From Negativibacillus massiliensis (lineage in GTDB: Bacteria > Bacillota > Clostridia > Oscillospirales > Ruminococcaceae), in assembly GCF_900148495.1 (NCBI RefSeq), contig NZ_FTRU01000007.1:372001-436000 (forward strand): a stretch of 64,000 bases of DNA, read 5' to 3'. Positions 18,156 through 42,141 of the stretch are shown in pieces; positions within the stretch are counted from its first letter, which is position 1, and the number at the start of each line of letters is the position of its first letter. Both the position numbers and the translations under genes were made by a program. The notes beneath the pieces are model-generated. The model was not told the origin of the DNA. It worked only from the letters and a program-made list of their open reading frames with translations, and did no database searches.

Positions 18156-18158
18156 CAG

Positions 18159-18193
18159 AAAGACTGTGCTGGTTTTTGACCAGCACAGTCTTT
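18159..18193 (+). terminator. Terminator after the relaxase gene
   Basis: AAAGACTGTGCTGG and CCAGCACAGTCTTT form a perfect 14-bp stem with a seven-base loop, four bases after the relaxase stop. The stem separates the mobilisation unit from the BREX operon. Confidence 0.85.
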
Positions 18194-18278
18194 CCCTTTA
18201 GCTGTATATCATCCAAATCGAAAATGATGAATGTCTCGTGCAAATCGGTCGTATTCACCCAAAGTTTACGAAACTCTA

Positions 18279-18307
18279 TTGAATAGCAGACCTTCTTGTG
18301 CTATAAT
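18279..18307 (+). promoter_or_regulatory. Promoter of the BREX operon
   Basis: TTGAAT and TATAAT are separated by 17 bp. Transcription would begin near 18314, some 36 bp before the HTH regulator gene. No other strong promoter is seen before the terminator at 38672, so this may drive all 13 genes. Confidence 0.7.
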
Positions 18308-18349
18308 ATAAGTTAGGTTTATTTTACATACTTTGCTGAGGTGAAAGTC

Positions 18350-18568
18350 ATGAAAGCAAGCTACAAAAAGTTGTGGAAACTGCTCGTCGATAAGGAAATG
18401 AGCAAGGGTGATCTTCATAAGGCGTCCGGTCTTTCTTCAAGCACAATGACCAAGCTCAGAAAAGGTGAAGACGTGTCAATGGAAGCTCTGAGAAAAATCT
18501 GCATTTGCCTTGACTGCAATATCGGTGACATTGTGGAGTTTGTCCCTGACAACACAACACAGTCCTAA
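18350..18568 (+). CDS. Small Cro/CI-type HTH regulator of the BREX operon
   Basis: The 72-residue protein is a single helix-turn-helix domain of the YozG/HTH_26 kind: MSKGDLHKASGLSSSTMTKLRKG followed by SMEALRKICICLDCNIGDIVEF. I start at the ATG at 18350, with GAGGTG six bases upstream. It is the first gene after the promoter and precedes brxA by about 50 bp, so it is the likely autoregulator of the defence operon. Many BREX loci use the larger WYL-type BrxR in this place; this is a different and much smaller protein. Confidence 0.85.
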   Translation: MKASYKKLWKLLVDKEMSKGDLHKASGLSSSTMTKLRKGEDVSMEALRKICICLDCNIGDIVEFVPDNTTQS

Positions 18569-18620
18569 ATATGGGACAGGAAATATGGTACAGTATGCTA
18601 TTAGGAATGGAGCAAATATA

Positions 18621-19226
18621 ATGGATCAGACGCACCCTTATAACGGCAGCTTAACTGCTGAACAGTTTCTCTTCTACGAGATAAGAATTGCTGCAAAATA
18701 CTATGTTTCTGGCTTGAAAATTGATGAGGCAATCGAGCGGATTAAGAAGAATAACCTCTTTCAATATCCAACAGAGAGACAAGTTTCCCGTTTGGCAAGA
18801 GCTTGTTATAAGCGGCTGGACGCGCTCGGCAACGATCAGCTTGTTCACGAGCTTGCCTCTGCACCAAATGAGATTGCAAAGCAGATCAATCTATACGCGG
18901 TGATGAGGTATAATCGTTTGGTCTGGGAGTTTATGATTCAGGTGATAGGCGAAAAATACCGAAATCAGGACATGAACTTCTCAAGGAAAGACATGAATGC
19001 GTTTTTTTCCAGATTGCAAGCACAGGATGATTCTGTTGCCGCTTGGAGTGATGCGACAATCACCAAAATCAAAAGTGTTCTCGTTCGGATGCTGATAGAG
19101 ACAGGGTATCTGGACGGGCTGAAAGACACCACGCTGAATCCCGTTTTTCTCTGTGAAGAACTTGAACGAGGTATCGAAGCAAACAACGATTATGATGCAC
19201 TTCCGGCATTTAATTACTTTAGATAG
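18621..19226 (+). CDS. brxA: BREX protein BrxA (DUF1819)
   Basis: The 201-residue protein matches BrxA in length, in its place as first BREX gene, and in sequence (LTAEQFLFYEIRIAAKYYVSGLKIDEAIERI at the start; FSRKDMNAFFSRLQAQD later). BrxA is a NusB-like, DNA-binding helical protein required for type 1 BREX in some systems. The start is the ATG at 18621 after GGAG; further upstream in-frame starts overlap the regulator gene. brxB follows 16 bp after its stop. Confidence 0.9.
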   Translation: MDQTHPYNGSLTAEQFLFYEIRIAAKYYVSGLKIDEAIERIKKNNLFQYPTERQVSRLARACYKRLDALGNDQLVHELASAPNEIAKQINLYAVMRYNRLVWEFMIQVIGEKYRNQDMNFSRKDMNAFFSRLQAQDDSVAAWSDATITKIKSVLVRMLIETGYLDGLKDTTLNPVFLCEELERGIEANNDYDALPAFNYFR

Positions 19227-19242
19227 GCGGGCGGACACGACC

Positions 19243-19797
19243 ATGATAAAACAGGAATTAGACAGGATCAAAGAGCGTATCTCGAATAAGGATTTCCTTG
19301 AAAACAAAGGACTGAGCAACGAAGTTGGTATCCATGTTTTCTGCTACAAAGCGGAGGATGAGTTGATCGTTCAGGATTATATTCGCAGATTAAAAAGTGA
19401 GGTGAACACGCCATATCGGATCATTGAGTGCGACCTTTATGAAGTGTTTCTCTCCCTTTTGGAGGACAAGCGCATTCTGAAATCAGTTGCAGGGTTAGAA
19501 GAAAAACGAGGCAAAAAGTATCTTCTGGATCAGTTGCAGAAGATCGCCACACCGGAAGCTCTCCTTGCCAAGATGGACTATTCACCCCATATCAAAGGGC
19601 AGGATGTTCTCTTCATGACAGGAATTGGAAAAATTCATCCGTTTATGCGTTCCCATAAGATGCTTGATAGTATGCAGCATCTCTTTGAAGACATCCCTAT
19701 TGTGATGTTCTATCCCGGAACCTTCAATGGACAGACGCTCAATCTATTCGACGAGTTCAAAGAAGGCAATTATTATCGGGCATTCAATCTGCTATAA
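19243..19797 (+). CDS. brxB: BREX protein BrxB (DUF1788)
   Basis: The 184-residue protein has the DUF1788 features: an N-terminal helix with RIKERISNKDFLENKGLSNEVGIHVFCY and a C-terminal SHKMLDSMQHLFEDIPIVMFYPGTFNGQTLNLF segment. BrxB is a core part of type 1 BREX with no known enzymatic activity and probably assembles with BrxC and PglZ. The start is the ATG at 19243. It follows brxA closely and is 13 bp from brxC. Confidence 0.92.
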   Translation: MIKQELDRIKERISNKDFLENKGLSNEVGIHVFCYKAEDELIVQDYIRRLKSEVNTPYRIIECDLYEVFLSLLEDKRILKSVAGLEEKRGKKYLLDQLQKIATPEALLAKMDYSPHIKGQDVLFMTGIGKIHPFMRSHKMLDSMQHLFEDIPIVMFYPGTFNGQTLNLFDEFKEGNYYRAFNLL

Positions 19798-19810
19798 TGG
19801 AGGTAGCAAC

Positions 19811-22800
19811 GTGAAAATACAGAATATGTTCCAGAAGGACATTGAAAGAGACATCAACGGCGTTATCAAGGTTATGCAGGATGATGACCGGAGTTTGGAA
19901 CAGGAACTCAGCGAATACATAATTACCAAGGAGCTTCGCCGTCACTTCCGCACATTCTTTGACAACTACACAAAGGCTATCGACCAGCCGACTGATAAAA
20001 TCGGCGTGTGGATTTCCGGCTTCTTTGGAAGTGGTAAATCTCATTTCCTGAAAATCCTCTCTTACCTGCTTTCCAATCAGGAAGTCTGCGGTAAAAGAGC
20101 GATTGACTACTTTGCAGACAAATTCGATGACCCGATGATGTATGCTCAGGCGGTTAAAAGTGTGTCCGTGCCTACGCAGTCTATCCTTTTCAACATTGAC
20201 ATCGAAGGTCCTCTCACGAAGGATAAGACCGCAGTGCTGCGCGTCTTTGCAAAGATGTTCTACAATCACTGCGGGTTTTACGGCGATGATCTGAAAATTG
20301 CCAAGCTGGAACGCTTCATTGAAAAGCAAGGCAAGACGCAGCAGTTCCGCGAAGCCTTTGAGAAGGTCAATGGTGCGCCTTGGACGGAGACTCGCGATTC
20401 CTTTGCGTTCTTTGAGGATGACATTGTTTCGGTTCTGCAATCTACGCTCGGCATGAGCGAACAGGCGGCGCGGAACTGGTTCAATGGTGAGGAAACGAAT
20501 GAGCTGAGCATCGCCCAGCTCGTAGCTGACATTCAGGAATATGTAGACGGCAAGGGCAAGGATTTCCGACTGCTGTTTATGGTGGATGAAGTCGGTCAGT
20601 ACATTGGTGACGATGGTGACTTGATGATCAATCTGCAATCTCTTGTAGAAGAGATTGGCATTCGCTGCCACGGCAAGGTTTGGGTCATGGTGACAAGTCA
20701 GGAGGCGATTGACTCCGTTGTCCATATCACCGGCAATGACTTTTCCAAAATTCAGGGACGCTTCAATACGCGCCTCAGCCTTTCCTCGTCCTCCGTTGAT
20801 GAAGTTATCAAAAAGCGTGTTCTGGCGAAAACAGATGCGGCAGATCAGCTTCTTCGCATGGTCTATGACAAGGAACACGCCGTACTCAAAAACCTCTATA
20901 CTTTCAACAATCCCGTTCTTGACATCAAGGGCTTTACGGATGGTGCGGAGTTTTCTGCAACTTTCCCCTTTGTGCCGTATCAGTTCATCGTGATCCAGAA
21001 GGTGCTTGCCGAGATTCGCAAGCACGGCAATTCCGGCAAGCATCTGTCCGGCGGTGAGCGTTCCATGCTCTCCGGCTTCCAAGAAGCAGCACAGGATGTG
21101 AAGGATAAGGATGAAAATGCTCTGGTTCCATTCCATCTTTTTTACAATACAGTTCACACATTCCTCGAAAGCCCCATCCGACGGGTTATCGACCGCTGCC
21201 AGACTGCGGCAGACAATCACGATGGGCTTGAGCAGCAGGATGTCAGCGTCCTGAAGCTCCTTTACCTTGTACGTTATATTGAGGACATCAAGGCGAATAT
21301 CGACAATATCTCCATCCTCATGATCGATGACATCCGCACAGATAAGATTGCGCTGCGGGCTTCGGTTTCCGCCTCGCTGGAAAGGCTTCTCTCGCAGAAC
21401 TACATTTCTCGCAATGGCGATACCTATGCCTTCCTGACGGACGAGGAACAGGACATTGCCATCGACATCAAGAACACACCGGTTGACAGCGCACAGGTCA
21501 TCACCAGCATTGCACAGACCGTTTACGGAGAAATCTATCCCTCCAAGAAATTCAAACATGACAAGTATGACTTCGCCTACGACCAATACATTGACGAGAC
21601 CCTGAACGGCTCTGCTTGCGGAGGAATGCGGCTTCGCATTGTTACCGTGGCAAGCGACTACTACGGTGCGCCGAACGAACGGCTTATTATGGATTCTCAG
21701 GTCAACAACGAAGCAATCGTTGTGCTCTCCAATGAGACGCCGTATTTTGATGAGCTGGAACAGGCGATGAAGATCCGCAAGTATGTCAAGCAGCGGAACG
21801 TATCTCAGCTTCCCGAAAGCATTCAGGACATTATCCGCAAGCGGCAGCAACAGGCGCGCATTCTGGAAGAAAGAGCGCGTAGCTATATTGAAAAAGCTAT
21901 CGTCGGTGCAAAGGTCATTGTCCACGGCGAGGTCATGGACATCAAGACTGGCAACGCGAAAGACAAGCTGGACGCCGCGATGAACGGTCTGGTTGAGAGC
22001 GTCTATTCCAAGCTCAACATGGTCAACCGGTTCGTAGAGAGCGACGCAGACATTCTTTCCATCCTGAATGGAACGGATGACGGGCAGATTGCCTTCACCG
22101 GTCAGGGCGCAAACAACGAGGATGCGCTGAACGAGATCAGCCAGTGGCTTGAGCTTCAAAATCAGAAGATGCTCAGCACCTCAATGGGCGATGTGCAGCG
22201 CCGGTATCAGGCGATTCCCTACGGCTGGCGTGAAATTGATATTGCTGCGCTGATTGCTCGTTTGATCTCTCAGCAGAAAATCTCCATCAAATACGGCGGT
22301 GCTTTGGTTGGCAAGGACGAGCGTAGACTGGTTGATTATCTGCGCAAAAAATCCGAGATCGACAAGGCAGTCGTTACCCGCAGAATTGCCCCGTCCGAGG
22401 ACCTTATGCGCAAGAGCATCGCCTTCCTCCGGGACTATCTTGGCGCGATGGATATTCCTTCTGATGAGGATGGGCTGATCCGCTTCGTGCTGGACACCTT
22501 TACCCAAAAGCAGGAGCATTATCAGGAGCTTCTTGATAAAGCCTATTCTGAGTTCCGTTACCCGGAAAAGGAAGTTGTCACAAAAGCCCACGACCTTATG
22601 AATGATGTTCTGAGTCAGCGTAGGGACAATGTTGCGCTTCTCACACGCATGGTGCAGCGTCAGGAAGACCTTCTGGATTGCTCTGAGGACATGGAGGGTG
22701 TGGAGTTCTTCTTCAAGTCGCAGCGGAGTGTGTATGATGAGGCACGGCGTCAGATGGAGCGCGTGAACAAGGAACGTGACTACTTTGCTTCTGATGCGGA

Positions 22801-23356
22801 TACATTGGAGGTCTTCCATACTATTGCGACCATCCTTGCACAGCCGAAGCCCTATGACCGCATTGGTGAGCTGCCGGAGCTGATTCAAAAGGTCAAAACG
22901 GCATACTCCGGTCTGCTGGATTTGAAGAAGGATGAGGTTGTCGAGAATATCCGTCAGTGTATGCAGGACGTTCATCAGCTTGCAACCGAGGCACGGGATG
23001 CTGGAGTTCTGCTACGTCAGGCAGACGATTACTTTGTCGGCAAGCGTGAGGCGGCGAAGAACGCATCTTCTCTCACCGAGTTGGACGCTATGATCACCCA
23101 GCTTCTCACCTACAAGGACAATATCTGCCGTCGCATGGAGGTTATGTCTGCATCTCATCAGGAACGCACTACCCCGGTCGGTACAGGTACGGCACAGCCC
23201 GCTCCGAAGATGCCGAAGATTACGACACTTCGCCGGTATGACCTCTGCTCTGTCAAGCGTCTGCAATCCAAGGAGGATATTGACCGGTACGTCGATGGAA
23301 TCCGCGAGAAGCTGCTGAAAACGTTGGAAAGCTGCGACGGCGTTCAGATCAACTAA
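19811..23356 (+). CDS. brxC: BREX protein BrxC, P-loop ATPase
   Basis: The 1181-residue protein is the large ATPase of BREX (DUF6079 type). The Walker A site GFFGSGKSH is near residues 69-77, and LLFMVDEVGQYIGD near 255-268 is the Walker B segment. Long coiled-coil regions fill the C-terminal half. The length and the brxB-brxC-pglX order fit type 1 BREX, in which BrxC forms part of the surveillance complex and is needed for both methylation and defence. The start is a GTG at 19811 with GGAGG seven bases before it. The gap to pglX is only 15 bp. Confidence 0.96.
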   Translation: MKIQNMFQKDIERDINGVIKVMQDDDRSLEQELSEYIITKELRRHFRTFFDNYTKAIDQPTDKIGVWISGFFGSGKSHFLKILSYLLSNQEVCGKRAIDYFADKFDDPMMYAQAVKSVSVPTQSILFNIDIEGPLTKDKTAVLRVFAKMFYNHCGFYGDDLKIAKLERFIEKQGKTQQFREAFEKVNGAPWTETRDSFAFFEDDIVSVLQSTLGMSEQAARNWFNGEETNELSIAQLVADIQEYVDGKGKDFRLLFMVDEVGQYIGDDGDLMINLQSLVEEIGIRCHGKVWVMVTSQEAIDSVVHITGNDFSKIQGRFNTRLSLSSSSVDEVIKKRVLAKTDAADQLLRMVYDKEHAVLKNLYTFNNPVLDIKGFTDGAEFSATFPFVPYQFIVIQKVLAEIRKHGNSGKHLSGGERSMLSGFQEAAQDVKDKDENALVPFHLFYNTVHTFLESPIRRVIDRCQTAADNHDGLEQQDVSVLKLLYLVRYIEDIKANIDNISILMIDDIRTDKIALRASVSASLERLLSQNYISRNGDTYAFLTDEEQDIAIDIKNTPVDSAQVITSIAQTVYGEIYPSKKFKHDKYDFAYDQYIDETLNGSACGGMRLRIVTVASDYYGAPNERLIMDSQVNNEAIVVLSNETPYFDELEQAMKIRKYVKQRNVSQLPESIQDIIRKRQQQARILEERARSYIEKAIVGAKVIVHGEVMDIKTGNAKDKLDAAMNGLVESVYSKLNMVNRFVESDADILSILNGTDDGQIAFTGQGANNEDALNEISQWLELQNQKMLSTSMGDVQRRYQAIPYGWREIDIAALIARLISQQKISIKYGGALVGKDERRLVDYLRKKSEIDKAVVTRRIAPSEDLMRKSIAFLRDYLGAMDIPSDEDGLIRFVLDTFTQKQEHYQELLDKAYSEFRYPEKEVVTKAHDLMNDVLSQRRDNVALLTRMVQRQEDLLDCSEDMEGVEFFFKSQRSVYDEARRQMERVNKERDYFASDADTLEVFHTIATILAQPKPYDRIGELPELIQKVKTAYSGLLDLKKDEVVENIRQCMQDVHQLATEARDAGVLLRQADDYFVGKREAAKNASSLTELDAMITQLLTYKDNICRRMEVMSASHQERTTPVGTGTAQPAPKMPKITTLRRYDLCSVKRLQSKEDIDRYVDGIREKLLKTLESCDGVQIN

Positions 23357-23371
23357 AGGAGAATTACGAGC

Positions 23372-26300
23372 ATGAATAAAGGTGCAATACAAAGATTTGC
23401 AATCTGGGCGCGGAACGAGCTGATCGCTCAGGTGTCGCAGAGAGCTTATCAGTATGGAATCACGAAGGAAGGCTGCGGCGAGGCAAACGCCGTGACGGTG
23501 GGCGGACGCGCACTGACTGGCGATGAGCAGAAGCAGCGCAAGGAGCTTGTCGATCAGATCCGCTCAAAAGGCTATACACAGGTTATGGAAGAGGTTGCCT
23601 ACACTTGGTTCAACCGTTTTATTGCCCTGCGCTTTATGGAGGTCAACAACTATCTGCCCTCCCACATTCGTGTCTTTTCCGACAGTACCGGCGCGTTCAA
23701 GCCGGAGATTTTAAGTGATGTCCTGCACCTTGACCTTCCGGGACTGAACCGGGAGAAAGTTGCGGAGTATATCGAAAGCAACGACACCGAAGGTCTCTAT
23801 CGCTATCTGCTGCTGACGCAGTGCAACGCACTGAACGACCCTCTTCCCCGTATGTTTGAGAAAATGGGCGGCTATACCGAGCTTCTGCTGCCGAACAACA
23901 TTCTGAAACAGGACAGCGTTCTCGGTCACATGGTTGCGGATATTCCCGAAAAGGACTGGACGGATCAGGTGCAGATCATCGGCTGGCTGTACCAGTATTA
24001 CAACTCCGAACTCAAGGATGACACCTTTGCTCTGCTCAAGAAGAATGTAAAGATCACCAAGGAACGCATTCCTTCTGCAACGCAGCTCTTCACCCCGGAC
24101 TGGATTGTCCGCTATATGGTTGAAAACAGCCTCGGCAGAATCTATGTAGACAAGCGCAAGAACGAGGGCATCTATGCGGACGGTCGCGGCTTGGATGAAA
24201 TGACTTGGCACGAAGCGGAATCTGAACGCATTGCAACAGAAACGCTGATTGCCGACAAAATGGGTTGGAAGTATTACTTGCCCGAAGCGGAACAGACGCA
24301 GGAAGTACGCAAGCAGCTTGACGAGATTCAGAACGAGTACGCCACGCTGGATGTCAAAGACATCAAGGTCATCGACCCCTGCATGGGCAGTGGTCATATT
24401 CTTGTCTATGCCTTTGATGTGCTGATGCAGATTTATGAGGCAAGCGGGTATAGCCAGCGGGACGCTGCGCAGAGCATTCTTGAAAACAACCTCTACGGTC
24501 TCGATATTGATGACCGTGCAGCGCAGCTTGCCTATTTTGCTGTCATGATGAAGGCACGGCAGTATGACCGCCGCGTATTCTCCCGTGGCATTCAACCTCA
24601 TGTGTATGCTATCGTCGAGAGCAATGGGCTGGACAGCAGCTCCGTTGAATACTTCACCAACAACGATCCGAAGCTCAAGAAGGACTTTGGAACTCTGATG
24701 GACGAGCTGCGAGATGCAAAGGAATATGGTTCCATTCTGAACATTTCTCAGGTGGACTTTGCCGCCCTCTATGCCAGAGTCGAGGAAGTGCGGGCTGACA
24801 TCAGTATGTTCCGCGAGATCGTGTTGAACAGCATTCTGCCGCTGATTCAGGCTGCTGAGGTTATGGCGCAGAAGTATGACGTGGTGGTCACGAATCCGCC
24901 GTATATGGGGATAAGTAACGCATCAGAAAAGCTAAATCAATATGCGAAAAAGGCTTATCCTATTTCAAGGTATGATTTAAGCACTATCTGCATGGAGAAA
25001 ACTCTTTCCATGTGCAATAAGACCGGAATGATGGCAATGATAAACATTCCTGTTTGGATGTCTAAGTCGAGTTTTGAAGACCTCAGATACTCATTGCTGA
25101 CTAAACATACATTTGTAAATATGCTGCATTGTGGAAGAGGTATTTTTGGATCGGACTTCGGTACAACTGCCTTTGTTATCAGAAAATCCTTTGAAAAAGG
25201 ATATGCTGCAACGTTCCATCAACTTTTTGATGAAATGGGAGCGGTTGATTCTGTTGAGCAAAAAGAACGGTGGTTTTTTGAAAGGAAAGGTCTCTACATT
25301 GCTGAGCAAAAGAAATTCTTGAACATTGGGAGCTATCCGATTGCTTACTCAACAAGTAAACGGCTTTTGGAGATCCTTGACACTGAAAAACCCCTGAGCG
25401 ACTTTGCGTACCCCCGTAAAGGACTAACTACGGGAGACAATGATACATTTATCCGCTTGTGGTTCGAGGTATCTGGTCAGAAATTCAGCATGACTGGTAA
25501 CGGGCGCAAATGGTTCCCGATGACCAAAGGAGGAGACTTCCGACGCTGGTATGGAAATAACGACTACGTTGTAAATTGGGAAAACAATGGATTTGCATTA
25601 AGGAACTTCAAGGATGAAGATGGAAAACTTCGATCCGTTTTGCGAAATACACAGTTTTACTTACGAGAGTGTATTTCGTGGAACGATACTACTGCAACCG
25701 GAAAGATTGCATTTAGGTATCAGCCCGAAGGGTATATTTCCAATGCGTCCGGACCGTGCGTATTCGCAGATCACGACTTGTTCTATCTGTTTGGACTTCT
25801 CAATTCTATTGTGTCGCAGAAGCTACTTGAAATTCTGGCTCCAAACATGAAGTTTGAAGTTGGTCAGATGGCATTGGTTCCGATTATAAAGAAGCAGTCT
25901 AACTATATTGATGATTTAGTCCGCAAGACAGTCGATATAGTGAAGTCTGACTGGGATTCGTTTGAAACCTCATGGGATTTCAAACTTCACCCATTGGTTG
26001 AAAACCAGCAATACGCCGCTACTTATCATTTCGATGAGCAAAACTCTCCTGCTCATCATATTAGCGCAGCCTATCAGATGTGGGTAGCAACAACTGAACG
26101 AAGATTCCAGCAATTAAAAACTAACGAGGAAGAACTCAACCGTATCTTCATTGACATCTACGGATTGCAGGGAGAACTTACGCCCGAAGTTGAGGACAAG
26201 GATGTCACTGTGCGAAAGGCTGATCTTGGAAGAGATATTCGTTCCCTCATTTCTTACGCCGTAGGATGTATGTTCGGGCGGTATTCGCTGGATAAGCCCG

Positions 26301-27058
26301 GTCTGGTTTTTGCCGGGTACAGCAAGATCGAGCAAACCACAAAGACGCTTGACGGTGAGGATCCTGAGCTTGAAAAGTTCGCAAAGCAGAACGCGGATGG
26401 TTCTGTCTCCTATGGCTCCTATTATCACGAGGTCAATCAGAATAACTATAAGTCCTTCTCGATTGACACGGACAATATCATTCCCATCTGTGATGATGAC
26501 TATTTCGACGATGACATCACCGGACGTTTTGTGAAGTGGGTCGAAACCGTTTACGGAAAGGAAACGCTGGAAGAAAACCTCAAGTTTATCGCAGATGCGC
26601 TCGGCGGCAAGGGAACACCCCGCGAGGTCATCCGAAGCTACTTCCTGAATGACTTCTATGCTGACCATTGCAGCACATACTCCGTTACTGGTTCGGGCAA
26701 GCGTCCGATCTACTGGCTCTTCGACAGTGGCAAGAAGAACGGCTTCAAGGCTCTGATCTATATGCACCGCTATCAGAGCGACCTTCTTGCCCGGATGCGA
26801 ACCGACTATGTTCACGAGCAGCAGGAGCGTTATCGCACCCAGCTTACCCATCTCGCGGACGCCATCGAACACGCCGGAGCTGCGGAGCGTGTGAAGTTGA
26901 CCAAGCAGCAGAAGAAGCTCCAAGAACAGGCACTTGAGATTCAGAAGTACGAAGAGAAAATTCATCATCTTGCCGATCAGAACATCCAGATCGACCTCGA
27001 TGACGGTGTGAAGCACAACTACGAGCTGTTTGCCGATGTGCTGGCGAAGATAAAGTGA
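23372..27058 (+). CDS. pglX: BREX adenine-specific DNA methyltransferase PglX
   Basis: The 1228-residue protein is the PglX methyltransferase that marks host DNA at a non-palindromic adenine site so that BREX spares it. The SAM motif DPCMGSGHILVYAFD is near residue 334, and the catalytic NPPYMG is at about 508. From the NPPY motif to about residue 890 the DNA is distinctly poorer in G+C than on both sides (sampled 60-base blocks about 35-38% against 50-57%). That central part should contain the target recognition domain, so the specificity module may have been exchanged. The gene itself is intact with no frameshift. RBS AAAGGAG precedes the ATG. Confidence 0.97.
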   Translation: MNKGAIQRFAIWARNELIAQVSQRAYQYGITKEGCGEANAVTVGGRALTGDEQKQRKELVDQIRSKGYTQVMEEVAYTWFNRFIALRFMEVNNYLPSHIRVFSDSTGAFKPEILSDVLHLDLPGLNREKVAEYIESNDTEGLYRYLLLTQCNALNDPLPRMFEKMGGYTELLLPNNILKQDSVLGHMVADIPEKDWTDQVQIIGWLYQYYNSELKDDTFALLKKNVKITKERIPSATQLFTPDWIVRYMVENSLGRIYVDKRKNEGIYADGRGLDEMTWHEAESERIATETLIADKMGWKYYLPEAEQTQEVRKQLDEIQNEYATLDVKDIKVIDPCMGSGHILVYAFDVLMQIYEASGYSQRDAAQSILENNLYGLDIDDRAAQLAYFAVMMKARQYDRRVFSRGIQPHVYAIVESNGLDSSSVEYFTNNDPKLKKDFGTLMDELRDAKEYGSILNISQVDFAALYARVEEVRADISMFREIVLNSILPLIQAAEVMAQKYDVVVTNPPYMGISNASEKLNQYAKKAYPISRYDLSTICMEKTLSMCNKTGMMAMINIPVWMSKSSFEDLRYSLLTKHTFVNMLHCGRGIFGSDFGTTAFVIRKSFEKGYAATFHQLFDEMGAVDSVEQKERWFFERKGLYIAEQKKFLNIGSYPIAYSTSKRLLEILDTEKPLSDFAYPRKGLTTGDNDTFIRLWFEVSGQKFSMTGNGRKWFPMTKGGDFRRWYGNNDYVVNWENNGFALRNFKDEDGKLRSVLRNTQFYLRECISWNDTTATGKIAFRYQPEGYISNASGPCVFADHDLFYLFGLLNSIVSQKLLEILAPNMKFEVGQMALVPIIKKQSNYIDDLVRKTVDIVKSDWDSFETSWDFKLHPLVENQQYAATYHFDEQNSPAHHISAAYQMWVATTERRFQQLKTNEEELNRIFIDIYGLQGELTPEVEDKDVTVRKADLGRDIRSLISYAVGCMFGRYSLDKPGLVFAGYSKIEQTTKTLDGEDPELEKFAKQNADGSVSYGSYYHEVNQNNYKSFSIDTDNIIPICDDDYFDDDITGRFVKWVETVYGKETLEENLKFIADALGGKGTPREVIRSYFLNDFYADHCSTYSVTGSGKRPIYWLFDSGKKNGFKALIYMHRYQSDLLARMRTDYVHEQQERYRTQLTHLADAIEHAGAAERVKLTKQQKKLQEQALEIQKYEEKIHHLADQNIQIDLDDGVKHNYELFADVLAKIK

Positions 27059-27074
27059 CGAAAGGAGTGTAACT

Positions 27075-28193: not shown

Positions 28194-28225
28194 TGGCTGT
28201 CATTCGCAATTAAGGAGAAAGAAAA

Positions 28226-30814: not shown

Positions 30815-30828
30815 AGGAGAAGCAGAAG

Positions 30829-32898
30829 ATGAGCGAGTTTATTGAAACGGTATCACAAGAGGATGCAAATGCCGTAATCGACAGCAAACTGCGCAAGGTG
30901 TTCGACGGCAGGATTGTCCGCAAAGACCTCACAAAGAAAATCAAGGAAGGGGCAAATGTCCCCGTTTATGTCCTTGAGTTTCTTCTTGGACAGTATTGCA
31001 GTTCCGATGACGAGGATGTCATTGAAACCGGGGTTGCAAACGTCAAGCGGATTCTGGCTGAAAACTACGTCCGTCCCGACGAGGCGCAGAAGATCCTTTC
31101 TGTCCTCCGTCAGCGAGGCAGCTATACCGTGATTGACAAAATCACGGTGAATCTCAACATTAAGACGGACAGCTATGAGGCTGAGTTTTCCAATCTTGGA
31201 ATCAAAGCTATTCCTATCTCTGAGGATTACCCGACTAAATACGACCGGCTTCTCTGCGGCGGTATCTGGTGCATTGTCCAGCTTGAATATGAATATGTGG
31301 AAGAGGATAAGCGCAGATCCCCAATACTCATTCATAAGCTCACGCCTATTCAGATGCCTCATGTGGACATTGAGGAATTGAAGCAGGGGCGAAAAGCGTT
31401 TACGCAAGAAGAATGGATCAAGATCCTACTTCGCTCCATCGGTATGGAACCGGACAAGTTGAACGACCGCGAACGCTGGCTTCTGCTTGCCCGTATGCTG
31501 CCGCTTGTCGAGAACAACTTCAACCTCTGTGAGTTAGGTCCGCGAAGCACTGGTAAATCCCATATCTACAAGGAAATCTCCCCGAACAGCATCCTTGTTT
31601 CCGGCGGTCAGACCACCGTCGCGAACCTGTTTTACAACATGGGCAGAAAAACCGTGGGCTTGGTTGGCTTGTGGGACTGCGTAGCGTTTGACGAGGTTGC
31701 CGGTATCAACTTTAAGGACAAAGACGGCATCCAGATCATGAAGGACTATATGGCGTCCGGCTCCTTTGCCCGTGGCAAGGAAGAAAAAGCCGCAACCGCT
31801 TCTATGGTCTTCGTCGGCAACATCAATCAGAGCGTGGATGTGCTGCTGAAAACGTCCAGTCTCTTTGACCCATTCCCTCCCGAAATGGGAACGGACACGG
31901 CATTTCTCGACCGTATGCACTGCTACATCCCCGGCTGGGAGATACCGAAGTTCCGCCCCGAACATTTCACCAATGACTACGGATTCATCACCGACTATCT
32001 GGCAGAGTTTATCCGGGAGCTTCGCAAGGAGCAGTACGGCGATGCGCTGGACAAGTATTTCCGCCTCGGCAAAAACCTTAATCAGCGCGATACCATTGCC
32101 GTCCGCAAGATGGTCGGCGGAATGATCAAGTTGCTCTATCCGGACGGGGAGTTCACGAAAGAACAGCTTGAAGAAATCCTCAAGTTTGCGCTCGAAATGC
32201 GCCGCCGCGTCAAGGAACAGCTCAAAAAGCTGGGCGGTATGGAGTTCTATGACGTCAATTTTTCGTACATTGACAACGATACCTTTGAGGAACATTTCGT
32301 GTCTGTCCCGGAACAGGGCGGCGGAAAACTCATCCCCGAAGGAATGTGCAATCCCGGTCAGGTCTATACGGTTTCTCAGGGAAAGAGCGGTATGATCGGC
32401 GTCTTCCGTCTGGAATCGCAGATGCTTCCCGGCAACGGCAAGTTTGAGCGGACAGGACTGAACTCTGACGGAAAGTGCAAGGAAGCGGCAAATACCGCAT
32501 TCAACTATCTGAAAGCGAACGGCAACCGCATCAGCGGCACGATTAGCACAACAACAAAGGACTATATCATCAACTATCAGGATTTGCAGGGCATCGGCAT
32601 GACCGAGAAACTTGCGCTTCCCACGCTGATTGCACTCTGCTCGATTGCGCTTGGGAAACCGACCCTCAGCAGTCTGGCGGTGCTGGGCGAGATCAGCATT
32701 GCCGGAACCATGCTCAAGGTGGACGAGCTTGCAAATGCCCTTCAGGTCTGCCTCGATAGCGGTGCAAAGAAGGTGCTTCTTCCCATTACCTCTGCGGCTG
32801 ACCTCGGAACAGCTCCCGCCGATCTAATCGGCTGCTTCAACCTGATTTTCTATCAGAGTGCGGAAGACGCTGTTTATAAAGCATTGGGCGTTGAGTGA
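30829..32898 (+). CDS. brxL: BREX Lon-like AAA+ protein BrxL
   Basis: The 689-residue protein has a P-loop (GPRSTGKSH near 237-245), Walker B-like CVAFDEVAG near 284-292, and a C-terminal Lon-like domain ending in LGEISIAGTMLKVDELANAL and GAKKVLLP. BrxL is the last core gene of type 1 BREX, forms DNA-binding rings and is needed for blocking phage. Comparing with true Lon, I see neither the catalytic serine (Lon GPSAG region) nor the lysine, so proteolysis is unlikely. I use the ATG at 30829 after AAGGAG; a GTG at 30811 overlaps pglZ and is an alternative. Confidence 0.94.
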   Translation: MSEFIETVSQEDANAVIDSKLRKVFDGRIVRKDLTKKIKEGANVPVYVLEFLLGQYCSSDDEDVIETGVANVKRILAENYVRPDEAQKILSVLRQRGSYTVIDKITVNLNIKTDSYEAEFSNLGIKAIPISEDYPTKYDRLLCGGIWCIVQLEYEYVEEDKRRSPILIHKLTPIQMPHVDIEELKQGRKAFTQEEWIKILLRSIGMEPDKLNDRERWLLLARMLPLVENNFNLCELGPRSTGKSHIYKEISPNSILVSGGQTTVANLFYNMGRKTVGLVGLWDCVAFDEVAGINFKDKDGIQIMKDYMASGSFARGKEEKAATASMVFVGNINQSVDVLLKTSSLFDPFPPEMGTDTAFLDRMHCYIPGWEIPKFRPEHFTNDYGFITDYLAEFIRELRKEQYGDALDKYFRLGKNLNQRDTIAVRKMVGGMIKLLYPDGEFTKEQLEEILKFALEMRRRVKEQLKKLGGMEFYDVNFSYIDNDTFEEHFVSVPEQGGGKLIPEGMCNPGQVYTVSQGKSGMIGVFRLESQMLPGNGKFERTGLNSDGKCKEAANTAFNYLKANGNRISGTISTTTKDYIINYQDLQGIGMTEKLALPTLIALCSIALGKPTLSSLAVLGEISIAGTMLKVDELANALQVCLDSGAKKVLLPITSAADLGTAPADLIGCFNLIFYQSAEDAVYKALGVE

Positions 32899-32930
32899 CG
32901 CCAAAGCCCTGATTGGAAGGAGGCGTACCC

Positions 32931-33806
32931 GTGTCCAAGAAAAAACGTTCAAAGAAGCGTGAGCGTATTCCCGTAATAGATACCTTGATTGATCTTGCCG
33001 GAGCAATGACCTTGGATTATCTTGCAGCAAAACGTAGGCAGAAATATGGTACAAAGCACAGCAAGAAAATTGATCCATACGCTGCCACCGGTGCTGCAAT
33101 GGGCATGGGTCTAATTAAGGACACAGATGACCTCATCAAGTTTGGCGGTGTCCTTGGCGCAATGGGAGCTTTTGATTCTGATGATGATTCACCAGTCAAC
33201 AAAGTCGCATACATGGCTCCCCGTGATAACCGCTACGCTTGGCGCCTGAATTGCGAGGATGGCAGCGCATACGGTATTGATCCAAACAATTATGAGACAA
33301 GAGACGAATATAATGAGGCTCTAAGCAGGGAAAAACACGGATGGCGTGATTACTGTGAAGATGGCTCAGACTACGGGATTTCACCAGAAGACTACGAGAC
33401 TGCGGAAGAATATAGTGCAGCAATAGATTCAGCGGAGTTCAATAGCTTTAATGAAAACGAGGATGATGAATTGATCATCCCGGATGATTCCTCCGAGAAT
33501 ATTGTGGGTGAGACATCTCCCGAATGCACGTCAAAAAGTGGCAGTGACCCGATTGAAAAACATGATCCGTATGCAGCAGATGATTTCCATGTATATATTT
33601 ACTGCCTTGTAAAGCTGGATGGAACAAACACGATAAAGTTCTACCGAACGGAGGATCGTACCTTGAAGCGAGGTGAGGCGGTTTTCGTTCCAGACGAAAG
33701 CTCAGGCAGTAAATTGAGAGGAACAATATGTTCTATTGAGCATCACATGAGTTTTTCTGTTCCAAAGCCCGTAGAGGAAACTCCTGTAATCATTGGAAGG
33801 GCGTGA
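32931..33806 (+). CDS. BREX-linked protein with tandem WR..CEDGS repeats
   Basis: The 291-residue protein starts with a GTG at 32931 after GGAGG, 32 bp behind brxL. It opens with a very basic stretch (SKKKRSKKRER), then a Gly/Met-rich hydrophobic part (TGAAMGMGLIKDTDDLIKFGG). Two copies of a 28-residue repeat follow near residues 104-160: WR-x2-CEDGS-x-YGI-x-P-x2-YET-x2-EY-x2-A. The C-terminal third looks beta-rich. I recall related repeats in other gut-Clostridia proteins but know no function. Co-transcription with BREX is the main hint. Confidence 0.72.
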   Translation: MSKKKRSKKRERIPVIDTLIDLAGAMTLDYLAAKRRQKYGTKHSKKIDPYAATGAAMGMGLIKDTDDLIKFGGVLGAMGAFDSDDDSPVNKVAYMAPRDNRYAWRLNCEDGSAYGIDPNNYETRDEYNEALSREKHGWRDYCEDGSDYGISPEDYETAEEYSAAIDSAEFNSFNENEDDELIIPDDSSENIVGETSPECTSKSGSDPIEKHDPYAADDFHVYIYCLVKLDGTNTIKFYRTEDRTLKRGEAVFVPDESSGSKLRGTICSIEHHMSFSVPKPVEETPVIIGRA

Positions 33807-33813
33807 TCAATGA

Positions 33814-34446
33814 ATGGATTGGGACTCCTATTATGAGAAGTTCTACGAATGGGCAACCAGCACGCAGATCAAGAAGATGTCCTCATTGACCTCGTTTGGT
33901 GCATCCGCCGAAATCTCTGAGGTCGCGCAGGAGTATATGGATGAGAAGGCAGCATCACGACTTATAAAAAAAGCGGTTGCCTATGGTGTCCAGTTCACGC
34001 CAGATGAAATCTATGACCTTTCCGGCTGCTGCGATATATCAGCCATGAATGAACTACTGAAATCTGCAAAATGCACCTTTACGCAGGAGCAGTTGGAAGA
34101 CCTTTGGGGTGCCGTAGACGATGAAGTTCTTGAGCTTGTAGCAAGGCGCAATCATGTGACTATGTTTGCAGATGACGAGAATGAAGCCCCTTCCGTAGAA
34201 GAGGAGATCGATTTTGACGAACCGAAGCAAAAAGAGCCAAAGCTCGGGTTCTTCTCAAAGCTCGGTATGGCACTTGCGATTGGAAGTCTTTTGGATAAGA
34301 AAAGCCAGTCTCACGACGGACATTGTACTGGTGACTGCGCAAATTGCCCTCCGCATTACGGGTACCGCTATGGAAGGTGGTATTATGGGCATGATCATAC
34401 ACACGGTTGCGAGTTTGGCGGAAATAAAGGCGGAGGCGGACTGTAA
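33814..34446 (+). CDS. BREX-linked protein with His/Cys-rich tail
   Basis: The 210-residue protein begins seven bases after the previous stop. The first 110 residues are helical. A short hydrophobic stretch (FFSKLGMALAIGSLL near 149-163) follows an acidic linker. The last 45 residues carry many His, Cys, Tyr and Gly residues (GHCTGDCANCPPHYGY, then YYGHDHTHGCEFGG), which suggests metal binding. The preceding gene has a similar hydrophobic Gly-rich segment, so the two may work as a pair, perhaps at the membrane. No family is recognised. Confidence 0.68.
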   Translation: MDWDSYYEKFYEWATSTQIKKMSSLTSFGASAEISEVAQEYMDEKAASRLIKKAVAYGVQFTPDEIYDLSGCCDISAMNELLKSAKCTFTQEQLEDLWGAVDDEVLELVARRNHVTMFADDENEAPSVEEEIDFDEPKQKEPKLGFFSKLGMALAIGSLLDKKSQSHDGHCTGDCANCPPHYGYRYGRWYYGHDHTHGCEFGGNKGGGGL

Positions 34447-34502
34447 AGCACAGGATGAAAACAAACTCACTGCTTTTCGACTGAACGTGATAGGAGGCAC
34501 AC

Positions 34503-35897
34503 ATGGATAACCCTTCTCTCAATCAGAATGGTATCGAATACAACGGAGAACAGATTGCCTACAAAGACAGCACCTATGAGCTTGTGTCAAAGGTAGCCTA
34601 CCTGATCGGCGTCCCGCTCCGTATTTTTCAAAATGAACACGAGCCGCCGAAGATAGAGATATACGACCGGCTTGAACAGGATAAAAATGCCCGTATCATT
34701 CGCAATCTCTGTATCATCCGCACCGCCATTGAGCGCAACTACCGGAAAATAAATGACATCATGCGGATGGAATACCGTGGGCTTCTTTCGATGCCGGAGA
34801 TCCTTCCAACATCCAGTATGCAGCAGCTTTCAAACGACGGAATCAGCTTTATCAAAAAGTCGAGTACAAAGCTCTGCCACCACATTATCGAGATTAACCG
34901 GCTGATTTCAGACCGCATTAACAACTGCAAAAGCCTCTTTCCAATCTGGATTAACTGGACGTACATAAAAGAGCTGTTCATTATGCCAAACGGCTTGACA
35001 GAGGACGGAACGAAAGATGCTGCCGATATTTATTACGCAAGTCTCTCCTACTACCCCTATCAAATGTATATCAACTGGGTACCGATGGACGAGGGTAATG
35101 TCCTCTATAATGATAAGAAGTTTGCTACCCTGCTTTATCAATGGCATTGCGACGCCTTCACGGAATACAGTAAAGTCTCTGATGCAGGGGCTTTTGTAAA
35201 AAACAATATCTATGACTTCATTGATGACAGCGAGAAGACCGTATTGGTAGTGGACTGCGAAAACTCCGACCCGTACAAGCTGTGTGCCACGCTCAAAAAT
35301 CTTGATTATGAGGTCATGCAGAAAATTACGGCGATCATTCTCTTTGATGACGTACATACCGCTACGGCATGGCGGATTCTTGAAAACTACACCCGCATCC
35401 CCGTTGAGCATATCATGATTGAGCGGATCAAGCAGAACAAATCACTGGTAGACATCAAGCTCACCGCAAGAGCCTGTCAGGAACACTACCAGAAGCAAGT
35501 GGATTCCTTCGTCATCGTCTCAAGCGATTCCGACTACTGGGGGCTTATCTCTTCCTTGCCGGACGCCAGATTCCTTGTCATGATTGAGCGGGAAAAATGC
35601 GGACCGGATATGAAGGCGGCACTCGCAGAATCCGGGATATTCTACTGCTATCTGGATGACTTCTACTCCGGCAACAGCGAGGACATCAAGAAAAACGCAC
35701 TGTTCAAGGAGATGTACCGCTGGATTGACAACTCCGTTCACCTGAACGTCAACGATATGTTTGACGCTGCTCTGCGAAACACGAGGATCGAAATGTCTCC
35801 CGCAGAGCGGTGGCAGTTCTATGAGAAGCACATCAGACACATGACGCTGACCATCGACGAGAACGGAAACGTCAGCATTGAACTGAAACGCGGATAG
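34503..35897 (+). CDS. NYN/PIN-like nuclease domain protein
   Basis: The 464-residue protein has in its second half the acidic motifs of a NYN (PIN-like) nuclease: VLVVDCENSDPY near residue 247, SLVDIKLTARACQ near 316-328 and IVSSDSDYWGLIS near 337-349. These place four aspartates around one metal site as in RNA-cleaving NYN enzymes. The N-terminal 230 residues are an all-helical domain without recognised family. It lies in the BREX operon between the His/Cys-rich gene and the helicase. It is a candidate effector that cuts RNA or DNA; activity is inferred. Confidence 0.85.
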   Translation: MDNPSLNQNGIEYNGEQIAYKDSTYELVSKVAYLIGVPLRIFQNEHEPPKIEIYDRLEQDKNARIIRNLCIIRTAIERNYRKINDIMRMEYRGLLSMPEILPTSSMQQLSNDGISFIKKSSTKLCHHIIEINRLISDRINNCKSLFPIWINWTYIKELFIMPNGLTEDGTKDAADIYYASLSYYPYQMYINWVPMDEGNVLYNDKKFATLLYQWHCDAFTEYSKVSDAGAFVKNNIYDFIDDSEKTVLVVDCENSDPYKLCATLKNLDYEVMQKITAIILFDDVHTATAWRILENYTRIPVEHIMIERIKQNKSLVDIKLTARACQEHYQKQVDSFVIVSSDSDYWGLISSLPDARFLVMIEREKCGPDMKAALAESGIFYCYLDDFYSGNSEDIKKNALFKEMYRWIDNSVHLNVNDMFDAALRNTRIEMSPAERWQFYEKHIRHMTLTIDENGNVSIELKRG

Positions 35898-35926
35898 CAT
35901 AGGTTTCTATTCCGGGAGGAATGTGG

Positions 35927-37975
35927 ATGAACAACAGATTCTATTTTGGATTCAATACATCGGAGGAACGGAAAAAGCGCAGAAAAGCAGAGCTGTACTC
36001 CATGAGTGAGCAAGTCAGCACCTTCTTTTGGGATGAAGCCCCGCAGCATGGCTTGGAAATGCGTGAAGGACAGCAGGATATGTCCTTTGAGATTGTGGAC
36101 GCCCTCATAAACGATCAGCATTTTGCGATTGAAGCTGGCGTGGGCATTGGAAAGTCCTTTGGCTATCTTGTGCCGGTGCTGCTGTACAGCAAACGCATGA
36201 ACAAGCCGGTTATCATCGCAACCTCGACCATTGCGCTTCAAGAACAGCTCTGGCGCGATGTCCACGCGGTAATGCCCCTTCTTGGGCTGAACAGAGATGT
36301 TATCCTCGCAAAAGGACAGACCCATTATCTCTGCAACAAACGCGCAGATGAGTATATGTGTGACCCGAAAGCAGACCCACCGGACGCGATCAAAGAAGGA
36401 ATCAAGCAAGGGTATGAGGAACGCAAGGATTTCCCGGAGTTTTTGCCGCAAGGAGTCTGGGACAAGGTAAACGTGCAGCGGTTCAGCATGAAGAATTGTG
36501 GCTCCTGTGAAAAGAAGTGCAAGTATTACAAAGTCCGCGCAGCATTAAAGTTTACGGATGGAGTGGTACTGTGCAATCAGGATTTTTTAACCCAGCATCT
36601 CATGAAACTCCGGCGCGGTCAGGAAGGGCTGATTAACGCCGCCGCTGATCTGCTTGTCGTGGATGAAGCACACAACTTGGATGATAAGGTGCGGAGTGCC
36701 ACAACGGAGCGTTTCGGGCAAGGTATGCTCTTTGGAATGATTAAGAACGCATTCTATGAGCTGCGATCCTTTGACCAGAGCAGTGTGTCAGGTGAAAAGC
36801 GAGAGGCAGAGAGCGCAATCATCGCCTTCTATAACTGTCTGAAAGCACAAGTCCAAAAGCAGATCAACGAGGCAGAACAGGATATGCGCTACGCTGACCG
36901 CTTTTTCTTCGACAACAATGGCAGTGCGATTGAACTGCTTACCGAGATGAACGCCGCCATACACAACCTTTCGTCCAGCATTCAGATTTATTCCAGCATG
37001 GATTTCAGAAACAACCGTTCCTTTGCTGCCTCTGATGATCTGGATGCCGTCAGCGAGTCCCTTTCAGAGCTTCTTGACCAGATAGACGATATGCTGATCT
37101 GGATTGAGCAGCACGGCAGCAACACGGAACTCGTCTATTGCCCTAAAAACACAAAAGAAATTGTGAGCCGCCTATACTTCAATGGTGATGAAAGAACCAT
37201 CTTGACCTCTGCCACGCTGACGAACGCCACGAGCGGGTCTCTGGAAGAACAGTATTCTTACTTTATCAGCAATACCGGCTTTCCCGCTGGTGACCGCGGC
37301 TGCTTATCCGAGCCAAAGCCTTCCCCATATCCATACGATGAACACGCCATGATCTACTATTGCGACGATCTCCCGCACCCGACCAGAGAACATGAAGCCT
37401 TCATTGAAAAGGGTGTGGAGCGACTGCTTGAGATCCTGAGCATTTCCAACGGAAAGGCACTCGTGCTGTTTACGGCAAAGACCGACATGGAAGAGGTCTA
37501 CTCCATTCTCAGTGAGAAAAATCTTCCGTACAAAATCTTGATGCAGCAGCCGGGATCGTCGCAGGACAAGGTGCTGAATGAGTTTAAGGAAGATACGAAC
37601 TCCGTGCTTCTGGGGACGGGTGCATATTGGGAAGGTATCAGCATTGAAGGAAAAAGCCTTTCCAATGTCATCATTTTCCGGCTTCCGTTTCCTGTCCCCG
37701 ATCCAATTATCGAGTATAAGTGTTCCGTTGCTAAGGATGCCCTGATGGATGTTCGTGTTCCCGAAATGATTATCAAGCTCAAGCAGGGCATCGGGCGATT
37801 GATCCGTAATTTCACAGACACCGGCATTGTCTGCATCATCGACCGAAGACTGCGGGATGAGCCGCCTGAACGCTATCATGACATTACATGGGACTCCCTG
37901 CCTATCAAAAATCGGACAAGCAGTTTGGAGGAACTGAGGAAGTTTTACGAAGGGCTGCCATCAGCCAAGGAATGA
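35927..37975 (+). CDS. DinG/XPD-like superfamily 2 helicase
   Basis: The 682-residue protein has a Q-like HGLEMREGQQDM motif, Walker A AIEAGVGIGKSFGY near residue 69, DEAH box VVDEAHNLDD near 243, and motif VI QGIGRLIRN near 620. Four cysteines between motifs Ia and II (one in YLCNKR and three in NCGSCEKKCKYY) match the iron-sulfur cluster of XPD/DinG helicases. It would unwind DNA or R-loops in the 5'-3' direction. I prefer the ATG at 35927, seven bases after GGAGG. It belongs to the BREX operon but is not one of the helicases usual in type 1 systems. Confidence 0.9.
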   Translation: MNNRFYFGFNTSEERKKRRKAELYSMSEQVSTFFWDEAPQHGLEMREGQQDMSFEIVDALINDQHFAIEAGVGIGKSFGYLVPVLLYSKRMNKPVIIATSTIALQEQLWRDVHAVMPLLGLNRDVILAKGQTHYLCNKRADEYMCDPKADPPDAIKEGIKQGYEERKDFPEFLPQGVWDKVNVQRFSMKNCGSCEKKCKYYKVRAALKFTDGVVLCNQDFLTQHLMKLRRGQEGLINAAADLLVVDEAHNLDDKVRSATTERFGQGMLFGMIKNAFYELRSFDQSSVSGEKREAESAIIAFYNCLKAQVQKQINEAEQDMRYADRFFFDNNGSAIELLTEMNAAIHNLSSSIQIYSSMDFRNNRSFAASDDLDAVSESLSELLDQIDDMLIWIEQHGSNTELVYCPKNTKEIVSRLYFNGDERTILTSATLTNATSGSLEEQYSYFISNTGFPAGDRGCLSEPKPSPYPYDEHAMIYYCDDLPHPTREHEAFIEKGVERLLEILSISNGKALVLFTAKTDMEEVYSILSEKNLPYKILMQQPGSSQDKVLNEFKEDTNSVLLGTGAYWEGISIEGKSLSNVIIFRLPFPVPDPIIEYKCSVAKDALMDVRVPEMIIKLKQGIGRLIRNFTDTGIVCIIDRRLRDEPPERYHDITWDSLPIKNRTSSLEELRKFYEGLPSAKE

Positions 37976-38049
37976 TGATACAAACGGCAGTCTCTTCGGA
38001 AACATAGAGCAGCCCCCCAAAAACGAGAATCAGAAAATGGAGGTGTATC

Positions 38050-38661
38050 ATGGTGTACAATGAAAATCTGCACGAAGAAGAACAACATCTGATCCAGCAG
38101 ATCGCCGAACAAACAGAGAGAGGTAAAATCGACTGGGAACTAACAGAGTACAATCCGCTGTCCTTTCTGAATGAGGACAAGATAGACAAGAACCCAGCAG
38201 TAATCTGTCAGTCCTTCTCCTTTGAAGCGATCATCGGCGGCTCCCGTTACGAGCTTGATGTCATGGAGAATATTGATGTGCCGTCCGGTATGGGAGACTA
38301 CACCATAACCTTGACGCGGGATGAAATCGAAAATTATCTTAAAATTGAGGAAGCGCTTTCCTTTGACTGTGACCGCTATGAATGCACACCGGAGGAAGTC
38401 GCAGAGCGATTTACGGACAGCCCCATTGTCCGTCTCTGCAACGCCATCATTCCTGCCACGCTTGGGCAGGAAGATTTAGAAGAGGTCTTCACATGGGCAA
38501 GGTTTTTCAACGAGACTGGCATTTCTGCAAAGCTGATGAATCATCCGCTGACCAAGCTCTGTGAAAAGCTGTTCGACGAACACCGTCTGATGGACTTCCA
38601 TCGCTGCGTCTTGGATGTGGGCTATCGAAAGCTGCTCCTAAATGAACTGGCTCATAACTAA
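38050..38661 (+). CDS. Last gene of the BREX operon, unknown
   Basis: The 203-residue protein is acidic, soluble and probably helical in its C-terminal half (VCQSFS-like strand segment near 54-60, then AERFTDSPIVRLCNAIIPATLG and EVFTWARFFNETG). No motif or family is recognised. The ATG at 38050 follows GGAGG. A strong hairpin lies 10 bp after its stop, so it closes the operon. The context suggests a regulator or accessory of the NYN/helicase pair, but nothing in the protein itself shows this. Confidence 0.65.
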   Translation: MVYNENLHEEEQHLIQQIAEQTERGKIDWELTEYNPLSFLNEDKIDKNPAVICQSFSFEAIIGGSRYELDVMENIDVPSGMGDYTITLTRDEIENYLKIEEALSFDCDRYECTPEEVAERFTDSPIVRLCNAIIPATLGQEDLEEVFTWARFFNETGISAKLMNHPLTKLCEKLFDEHRLMDFHRCVLDVGYRKLLLNELAHN

Positions 38662-38671
38662 GACACGGAAA

Positions 38672-38714
38672 AACGCCCCCGACACTGTGCCAGACGCACA
38701 GTGCCGGGGGCGTT
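38672..38714 (+). terminator. Terminator of the BREX operon
   Basis: A 19-bp stem with one mismatch (AACGCCCCCG-A/C-CACTGTGC arms) and a five-base loop follows the last gene. It is G+C-rich, and T-rich sequence follows at 38730-38740. It ends a unit of about 20 kb. Confidence 0.75.
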
Positions 38715-38755
38715 CCCGTTTCCAGCGATTTATTTTTCTCTCGGCAAGGGACTGT

Positions 38756-42128: not shown

Positions 42129-42141
42129 AGGCATCCTCCTT

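What the first reader, a model, noticed from the sequence alone, without database searches (positions are those of the whole stretch)
18279..38714. Type 1 BREX operon carried on an ICE and extended by at least six extra genes
From one promoter (18279) to one terminator (38672) 13 genes run in the same direction with gaps of 7-75 bp or overlaps. They hold the full type 1 core (brxA, brxB, brxC, pglX, pglZ, brxL), a small HTH gene, a DUF4238 gene and five genes after brxL. The tight spacing shows one unit. The extra genes could be a second defence layer or BREX modifiers that I do not know from described systems.
Basis: partly seen in the sequence, partly recalled or inferred. Interest (0 to 1): 0.8.

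Follow-up and report, generated by a model that had tools for sequence, protein, structure and literature searches.

The report
Swappable defence slot holding BREX operon
A complete anti-phage BREX system sits in a cargo slot of a conjugative element of gut Clostridia; sister elements carry a different restriction system at exactly the same place, so the last three of the supposed extra BREX genes belong to the element and not to BREX.

Summary
In detail: 13 co-directional, tightly spaced genes (18350-38661) encode a complete, intact type 1 BREX core plus a Cro-type HTH leader, a DUF4238 gene and five genes after brxL. The reading "one BREX operon with extra BREX genes" holds only in part. Six sister ICEs match the window at ~95-97% DNA identity up to 18057 and again from 34486/34526, in most cases on to 44665. 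Between these points they carry type I restriction-modification instead of BREX. So HTH-BREX-DUF4238-e1-e2 is an exchangeable cassette, while e3 (NYN nuclease), e4 (DinG-like helicase) and e5 are element-resident. None of 80 e3 relatives lies near BREX. More divergent ICEs carry type I R-M, or in one case type 3 BREX, after the same relaxase; all 14 slots inspected begin with the same kind of HTH gene. The DUF4238 gene fits the known pattern of a solo defence gene nested in BREX. e1 recurs behind brxL once, elsewhere not; e2 recurs only without BREX. Best comparison: hotspot 5 of SXT ICEs, where BREX, R-M and DISARM alternate. New member of a known kind, with a common HTH-led slot as the interesting part.

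The parts
16791..18155 (+). ICE relaxase, left neighbour of the slot; shared with sister ICEs at 93-94% protein identity; DNA identity ends at 18057
18279..18307 (+). predicted promoter of the slot (TTGAAT-17-TGCTATAAT)
   Evidence: consensus match only
18350..18568 (+). HTH_26 Cro/C1-type leader gene (predicted controller); 88% identical to the leader of a BREX-3 cassette in the same slot of another ICE, 45-54% to leaders of type I R-M cassettes
18621..19226 (+). brxA
   Evidence: start from profile alignment
19243..19797 (+). brxB
19811..23356 (+). brxC (Walker A intact)
23372..27058 (+). pglX, BREX-1 adenine methyltransferase
27075..28193 (+). DUF4238 gene nested between pglX and pglZ; probable independent solo defence gene
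   Evidence: literature PMC9122126
28226..30814 (+). pglZ type A
30829..32898 (+). brxL (Lon-related)
32931..33806 (+). e1, unknown, two ~30-aa repeats and a C-terminal beta-rich part; one relative directly behind brxL in G013
33814..34446 (+). e2, unknown, Cys/His-rich tail; relatives elsewhere without BREX
18058..34485 (+). exchangeable cassette: the segment replaced by type I R-M in sister ICEs
34503..35897 (+). e3, NYN/PIN-like nuclease with helical N-terminal domain; element-resident, not BREX
35921..37975 (+). e4, DinG/YoaA-like XPD-family helicase (GVGIGKS, DEAH, CxxCxxxC); element-resident
38050..38661 (+). e5, unknown 203 aa; element-resident
38672..38717 (+). strong hairpin after e5 (no T-run)

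Best explanation
The 13-gene run is a composite locus on a conjugative element. Directly behind the relaxase the element has a cargo slot that begins with a promoter and a small Cro-type HTH gene and in this branch ends with e3-e4-e5. Here the slot holds a 16.4-kb cassette: HTH, complete type 1 BREX, a nested DUF4238 gene, e1 and e2. Shown: the gene content, the exchange of this segment for type I R-M in sister elements with breakpoints at 18057 and 34486/34526, and the presence of an HTH leader in all 14 slots inspected. Inferred: PglX marks host DNA and the BREX proteins block unmarked phage DNA; DUF4238 is a second, independent layer; the HTH protein controls the slot promoter; e3-e5 are read as the tail of the same transcript and serve the element or act as generic companions of any restriction cassette, not as BREX parts; cassettes are exchanged by homologous recombination in the conserved flanks (relaxase/HTH on the left, e3-e5 on the right).
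For: Six fetched sister slots (L204-L209: Angelakisella, Fournierella, Gemmiger, Clostridiaceae bacterium 9, Faecalibacterium, Pseudoflavonifractor) align at ~95-97% DNA identity to the window up to 18057 (18058 in one) and again from 34526 (34486 in one) to the end of the stretch fetched, which lies inside e3/e4. L099, L100, L101, L102, L103 and L128, and two further ICEs G638 and G488, continue the right-hand match to 44665; in Faecalibacterium L109 it stops at 36244, inside e4. In between lie HsdR/HsdM/HsdS and integrase genes. No window gene other than a 49-51% HTH is found in the replaced segment. Among sisters the identity runs through the HTH gene and restarts just before e3, with at least three different type I cassettes. 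Divergent ICEs: G414, G589, L104 and L118 carry HTH plus type I R-M; G533 carries an HTH 88% identical to the window's, followed by BREX-3 with a nested SIR2-HerA pair. 0 of 80 e3 relatives near BREX. A second ICE in the same genome also has relaxase-HTH-BREX-1, with other extra genes (SEFIR/TIR, GmrSD, SMC-like).
Against: No transcript data. e1 and e2 lie inside the exchanged segment and could be BREX partners. e3 sits next to a restriction cassette in every ICE of this branch, so a functional link to restriction in general is not excluded. HTH proteins linked to BREX and to type I R-M are only 35-54% alike apart from the 88% pair, so the claim that one regulator serves all cassettes is not shown. 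Public assemblies give one genome per species; timing and direction of the exchange are unknown.
Confidence: 0.85

Rival explanations
1. One reading: all genes after brxL are BREX modifiers or a second defence layer that belongs to this BREX.
For: Tight spacing, same strand, no terminator-like site in between; PIN-family RNases are reported as backup effectors within or directly next to BREX loci (PMC12839542); e1 relative directly behind brxL in G013.
Against: e3-e5 persist at 96-99% protein identity with type I R-M instead of BREX; 0 of 80 e3 relatives near BREX; the genes behind brxL differ in almost every BREX-1 locus examined.
Confidence: 0.1
2. e3 (NYN nuclease), perhaps with e4 and e5, is a guard or backup effector for whatever restriction cassette occupies the slot, in the manner of the PrrC RNase that accompanies a type I R-M system (PrrC from general knowledge).
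For: In all 11 other slots of this ICE branch that carry e3, type I R-M lies directly before or after it; in Eisenbergiella L118 and Oscillibacter L104 e3 lies inside the operon (HTH-NYN-HsdR-HsdM-HsdS); catalytic Asp residues invariant and NYN fold predicted.
Against: The other 71 of 80 e3 relatives have no detectable HsdR/HsdM/HsdS within the stretch fetched and no conserved partner gene, so e3 does not depend on a restriction system.
Confidence: 0.2
3. Chance proximity of independent genes in a defence island, without any organised slot.
For: Defence genes cluster in islands in general; the 3' neighbours of brxL are highly variable.
Against: Coincident breakpoints in six sisters, HTH leader in 14 of 14 slots inspected and always a restriction-type cassette behind the same relaxase.
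Confidence: 0.05

Closest known systems
SXT/R391 ICE defence hotspot 5 (Vibrio cholerae)
   Same: One position of an ICE backbone carries BREX in some elements and R-M or DISARM in others; a regulator gene (WYL) precedes the defence systems (PMC12409358; PMC9122589).
   Different: Clostridial ICE with a different backbone; slot directly behind the relaxase; leader is a Cro-type HTH_26 protein; right border is e3-e5.
pEFER defence island (type 1 BREX with BrxU)
   Same: Extra genes within or before a BREX-1 operon, among them a regulator (BrxR) and an independent GmrSD enzyme that adds a second layer (PMC8565348).
   Different: Here DUF4238 is nested between pglX and pglZ; a GmrSD gene occurs instead behind brxL of the second BREX in the same genome.
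RptR-led type I R-M defence island (E. coli)
   Same: Small DNA-binding regulator as first gene of a restriction cassette with nested extra defence genes; also found ahead of non-R-M modules (PMC12255303).
   Different: RptR was not compared by sequence with the HTH_26 leader; here the leader also precedes BREX-1 and BREX-3.
DUF4238 single-gene anti-phage system
   Same: Pfam DUF4238 over nearly the whole protein; a DUF4238 protein from a P2-like prophage hotspot protects against T7 (PMC9122126).
   Different: Only the domain is shared; activity of this protein is untested.

Membership tests
Type 1 BREX | six core genes brxA, brxB, brxC, pglX, pglZ (type A), brxL | tested here: met
   all six above curated or strong scores; BREX-1-specific PglX and PglZ-A models match best
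Type 1 BREX | catalytic and nucleotide-binding motifs intact, no broken frames | tested here: met
Type 1 BREX | m6A marking of host DNA and exclusion of phage | not testable with these tools
   needs methylome sequencing and plaque assays
ICE defence-cargo hotspot (SXT hotspot 5 kind) | alternative defence systems at one position of an otherwise near-identical element | tested here: met
ICE defence-cargo hotspot (SXT hotspot 5 kind) | element is a functional conjugative element | tested here: inconclusive
   relaxase, MobC/NikA-like, TraG/VirB4-type ATPase and recombinase genes present; near-identical DNA in several genera implies transfer; transfer itself not tested
BREX accessory genes | e3-e5 recur next to BREX in unrelated loci | tested here: not met
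   0 of 80 e3 loci; e4 and e5 found with type I R-M
BREX accessory genes | e1 recurs next to BREX | tested here: inconclusive
   G013 directly behind brxL; G519 preceded by an unrelated reading frame
BREX accessory genes | e2 recurs next to BREX | tested here: not met
   relatives in G151, G257 and G036 without BREX genes in the stretches fetched; few cases
NYN nuclease (e3) | NYN domain with conserved acidic residues and NYN fold | tested here: met
   Pfam 1.2e-6; D251 and D342/D344 invariant; model pLDDT 84, Foldseek hits to the NYN structure of MARF1 (5yaa) and to 2qip, target TM about 0.6

The most novel reading that the evidence does not exclude
A dedicated defence socket in Clostridial ICEs: a fixed promoter plus HTH controller behind the relaxase and, in one branch, a fixed tail (NYN nuclease, DinG-like helicase, e5) into which complete restriction systems of unrelated kinds (BREX-1, BREX-3, several type I R-M) are exchanged, so that every cassette comes under the same entry-timed control and is backed by the same tail genes.
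Probability: 0.3. Interest if true: 0.6.

Novelty: new member of a known kind. Interest (0 to 1): 0.4.

Why it matters
It gives Clostridia a counterpart of the SXT hotspot in which BREX and R-M alternate on one spreading element, and it shows how an apparent BREX operon can include resident genes of the carrier element. Surveys that count genes adjacent to BREX as BREX effectors can be misled by such slots. The alternating cassettes behind one HTH leader are natural matched sets for testing whether one controller can run unrelated restriction systems.

Tried and rejected
e1-e5 as one conserved post-brxL module: rejected; e1 and e2 do not occur with e3-e5 in any sister. e1 and e2 in viral contigs, and e1 in plasmids: no relatives. 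The BREX cassette as near-identical DNA in plasmids: only a 357-bp brxL piece at 76%. A conserved partner of e3 outside the ICE: none found by clustering neighbours of 80 loci. Structure of e1: low confidence (pLDDT 54, pTM 0.26), not used. PDB profile search with e3: no hits; the fold search worked. e4 as type IV CRISPR DinG: PADLOC matches it, but no cas genes were noted and YoaA/DinG models score similarly, so it is filed only as DinG/YoaA-like. One Pfam call failed for wrong coordinates. A common operator in the promoters of the HTH genes: upstream sequences were only looked at by eye, nothing clear apart from a -10 box.
Full report
Observation. The window holds 13 genes in one direction from 18350 to 38661. 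Profile searches identify HTH_26, BrxA, BrxB, BrxC, PglX (BREX-1), DUF4238, PglZ type A and BrxL; then come e1 (no family), e2 (no family), e3 (NYN), e4 (DinG/YoaA-like helicase) and e5 (no family). Frames and key motifs are intact. The promoter match at 18279 is good but not beyond chance by count; the hairpin after e5 is very stable but lacks a T-run. The surrounding genes (relaxase, MobC/NikA-like, TraG/VirB4-type ATPase, topoisomerase, NlpC/P60, ArdA) confirm an ICE.

Test of the extension. In 323 genomes of the class, e3 has clear relatives in four other genomes, none with BREX genes in the DNA fetched around them; e2 has relatives in G151, G257 and G036, also without BREX nearby; e4 has one further relative at 43%. 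BrxL at 64-84% identity over its full length is found in about twenty of these genomes, and the genes that follow it differ from case to case; those identified include GmrSD plus an SMC-like protein, a CBASS-type cyclase, Cas9 and a PDC-S11 protein. Only G013 has an e1 relative directly behind brxL. A second strong e1 relative, in G519, is preceded by an unrelated reading frame.

Sister elements. A scan of 84,980 genomes with the e3 alignment gave 80 loci. In seven of them e3 is 97-98% identical; six of these keep e4 and e5 at 96-99% identity and one (L109) keeps only the first 111 residues of e4. None of the 80 has a BREX gene in the stretch fetched (the stretches vary from 3 to 21 kb). For six of the seven the DNA from relaxase to e3 was fetched. 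All six align to the window at about 95-97% up to 18057 or 18058 and again from 34526 (34486 in L209) to the end of the fetched stretch, inside e3 or e4. The right-hand match continues to 44665 in L099, L100, L101, L102, L103 and L128 and in two more ICEs, G638 and G488, but stops at 36244 in L109. Between the junctions lie type I R-M genes with a tyrosine integrase, led by an HTH gene 49-51% identical to the window's. In the seventh, L102, only HsdR is visible because the contig breaks. Comparison of sisters with each other shows identity through the HTH gene and again just before e3, with at least three different type I cassettes in between. The segment 18058-34485, that is HTH, BREX, DUF4238, e1 and e2, is therefore what is exchanged, and e3-e5 lie outside it.

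Wider slot. Relaxases 73-78% identical lead to the same picture. In L104 and L118 the order is relaxase, HTH, e3, then HsdR, HsdM, HsdS. G414 and G589 have HTH and type I R-M without e3. G533 has an HTH 88% identical to the window's, followed by a type 3 BREX (BrxF, BrxC, PglXI, BrxHI, PglZ, BrxA) with a nested SIR2-HerA pair. Counting the window, the six fetched sisters, G638, G488 and these five, 14 of 14 slots inspected start with an HTH gene and carry a restriction-type system. A second, diverged ICE in the same genome also has relaxase, HTH, BREX-1, with a SEFIR/TIR gene between brxC and pglX and GmrSD plus an SMC-like gene behind brxL.

Function. BREX is presumed to work as described for type 1 systems (established knowledge; not tested). 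DUF4238 fits the known habit of BREX operons to harbour independent defence genes: a DUF4238 protein alone protects against T7 (PMC9122126), BrxU is the classic nested second layer (PMC8565348), and removal of the accessory ATPase or DUF4435 gene of StySA leaves methylation unaffected (PMC9009780). The HTH leader resembles in position BrxR, the WYL regulator ahead of SXT defence systems (PMC9122589) and RptR (PMC12255303). e3 is a predicted NYN nuclease and e4 an intact XPD-family helicase by motifs; since they follow any cassette in this ICE, they are taken as element genes or generic companions. PIN RNases are reported as backup effectors next to BREX (PMC12839542), so a guard role for e3 remains possible, but 71 of its 80 relatives show no type I R-M genes nearby; MmeI-like and C5-methylase genes do occur near a few.

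Place among known things. The arrangement corresponds to hotspot 5 of SXT ICEs, where BREX, R-M and DISARM alternate (PMC12409358). I found no description of this Clostridial slot in the open-access library, which does not exclude one elsewhere. Limits: no expression data, one genome per species, and function inferred throughout.

Noticed in passing
G000:C2:331044 to about 345280 (-), outside the window (L067, L068): Second complete type 1 BREX in the same genome on a diverged ICE, with a SEFIR/TIR gene between brxC and pglX and GmrSD plus an SMC/AAA-like gene behind brxL.
   Followed up: partly
L218 1640-16537 (G533): Type 3 BREX with a nested SIR2-HerA pair in the same ICE slot, led by an HTH gene 88% identical to the window's.
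   Followed up: yes
window 40356-42185 (-): ArdA antirestriction domain joined to DUF3846, LPD18 and DUF4316: the same element carries restriction and antirestriction.
   Followed up: no
window 44666-48111: Segment with tyrosine recombinase genes (at least two confirmed by Pfam) that is missing in sister ICEs, whose matches run 44665 to 48112 without it.
   Followed up: no
window 61411-64000 (-): Group II intron with reverse transcriptase; the match to G638 and G488 stops at 61410.
   Followed up: no
window 3556-3626 (-): pemK RNA motif (RF02913), 70.6 bits.
   Followed up: no
window 10316-11359 and 12920-14428 (+): Macro-domain protein and Y-family (impB/mucB) polymerase ahead of the mobilisation genes, conserved in L104 and L118.
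   Followed up: no
L109 11305-12483: In the Faecalibacterium sister the match to the window ends inside e4, which is broken there.
   Followed up: no
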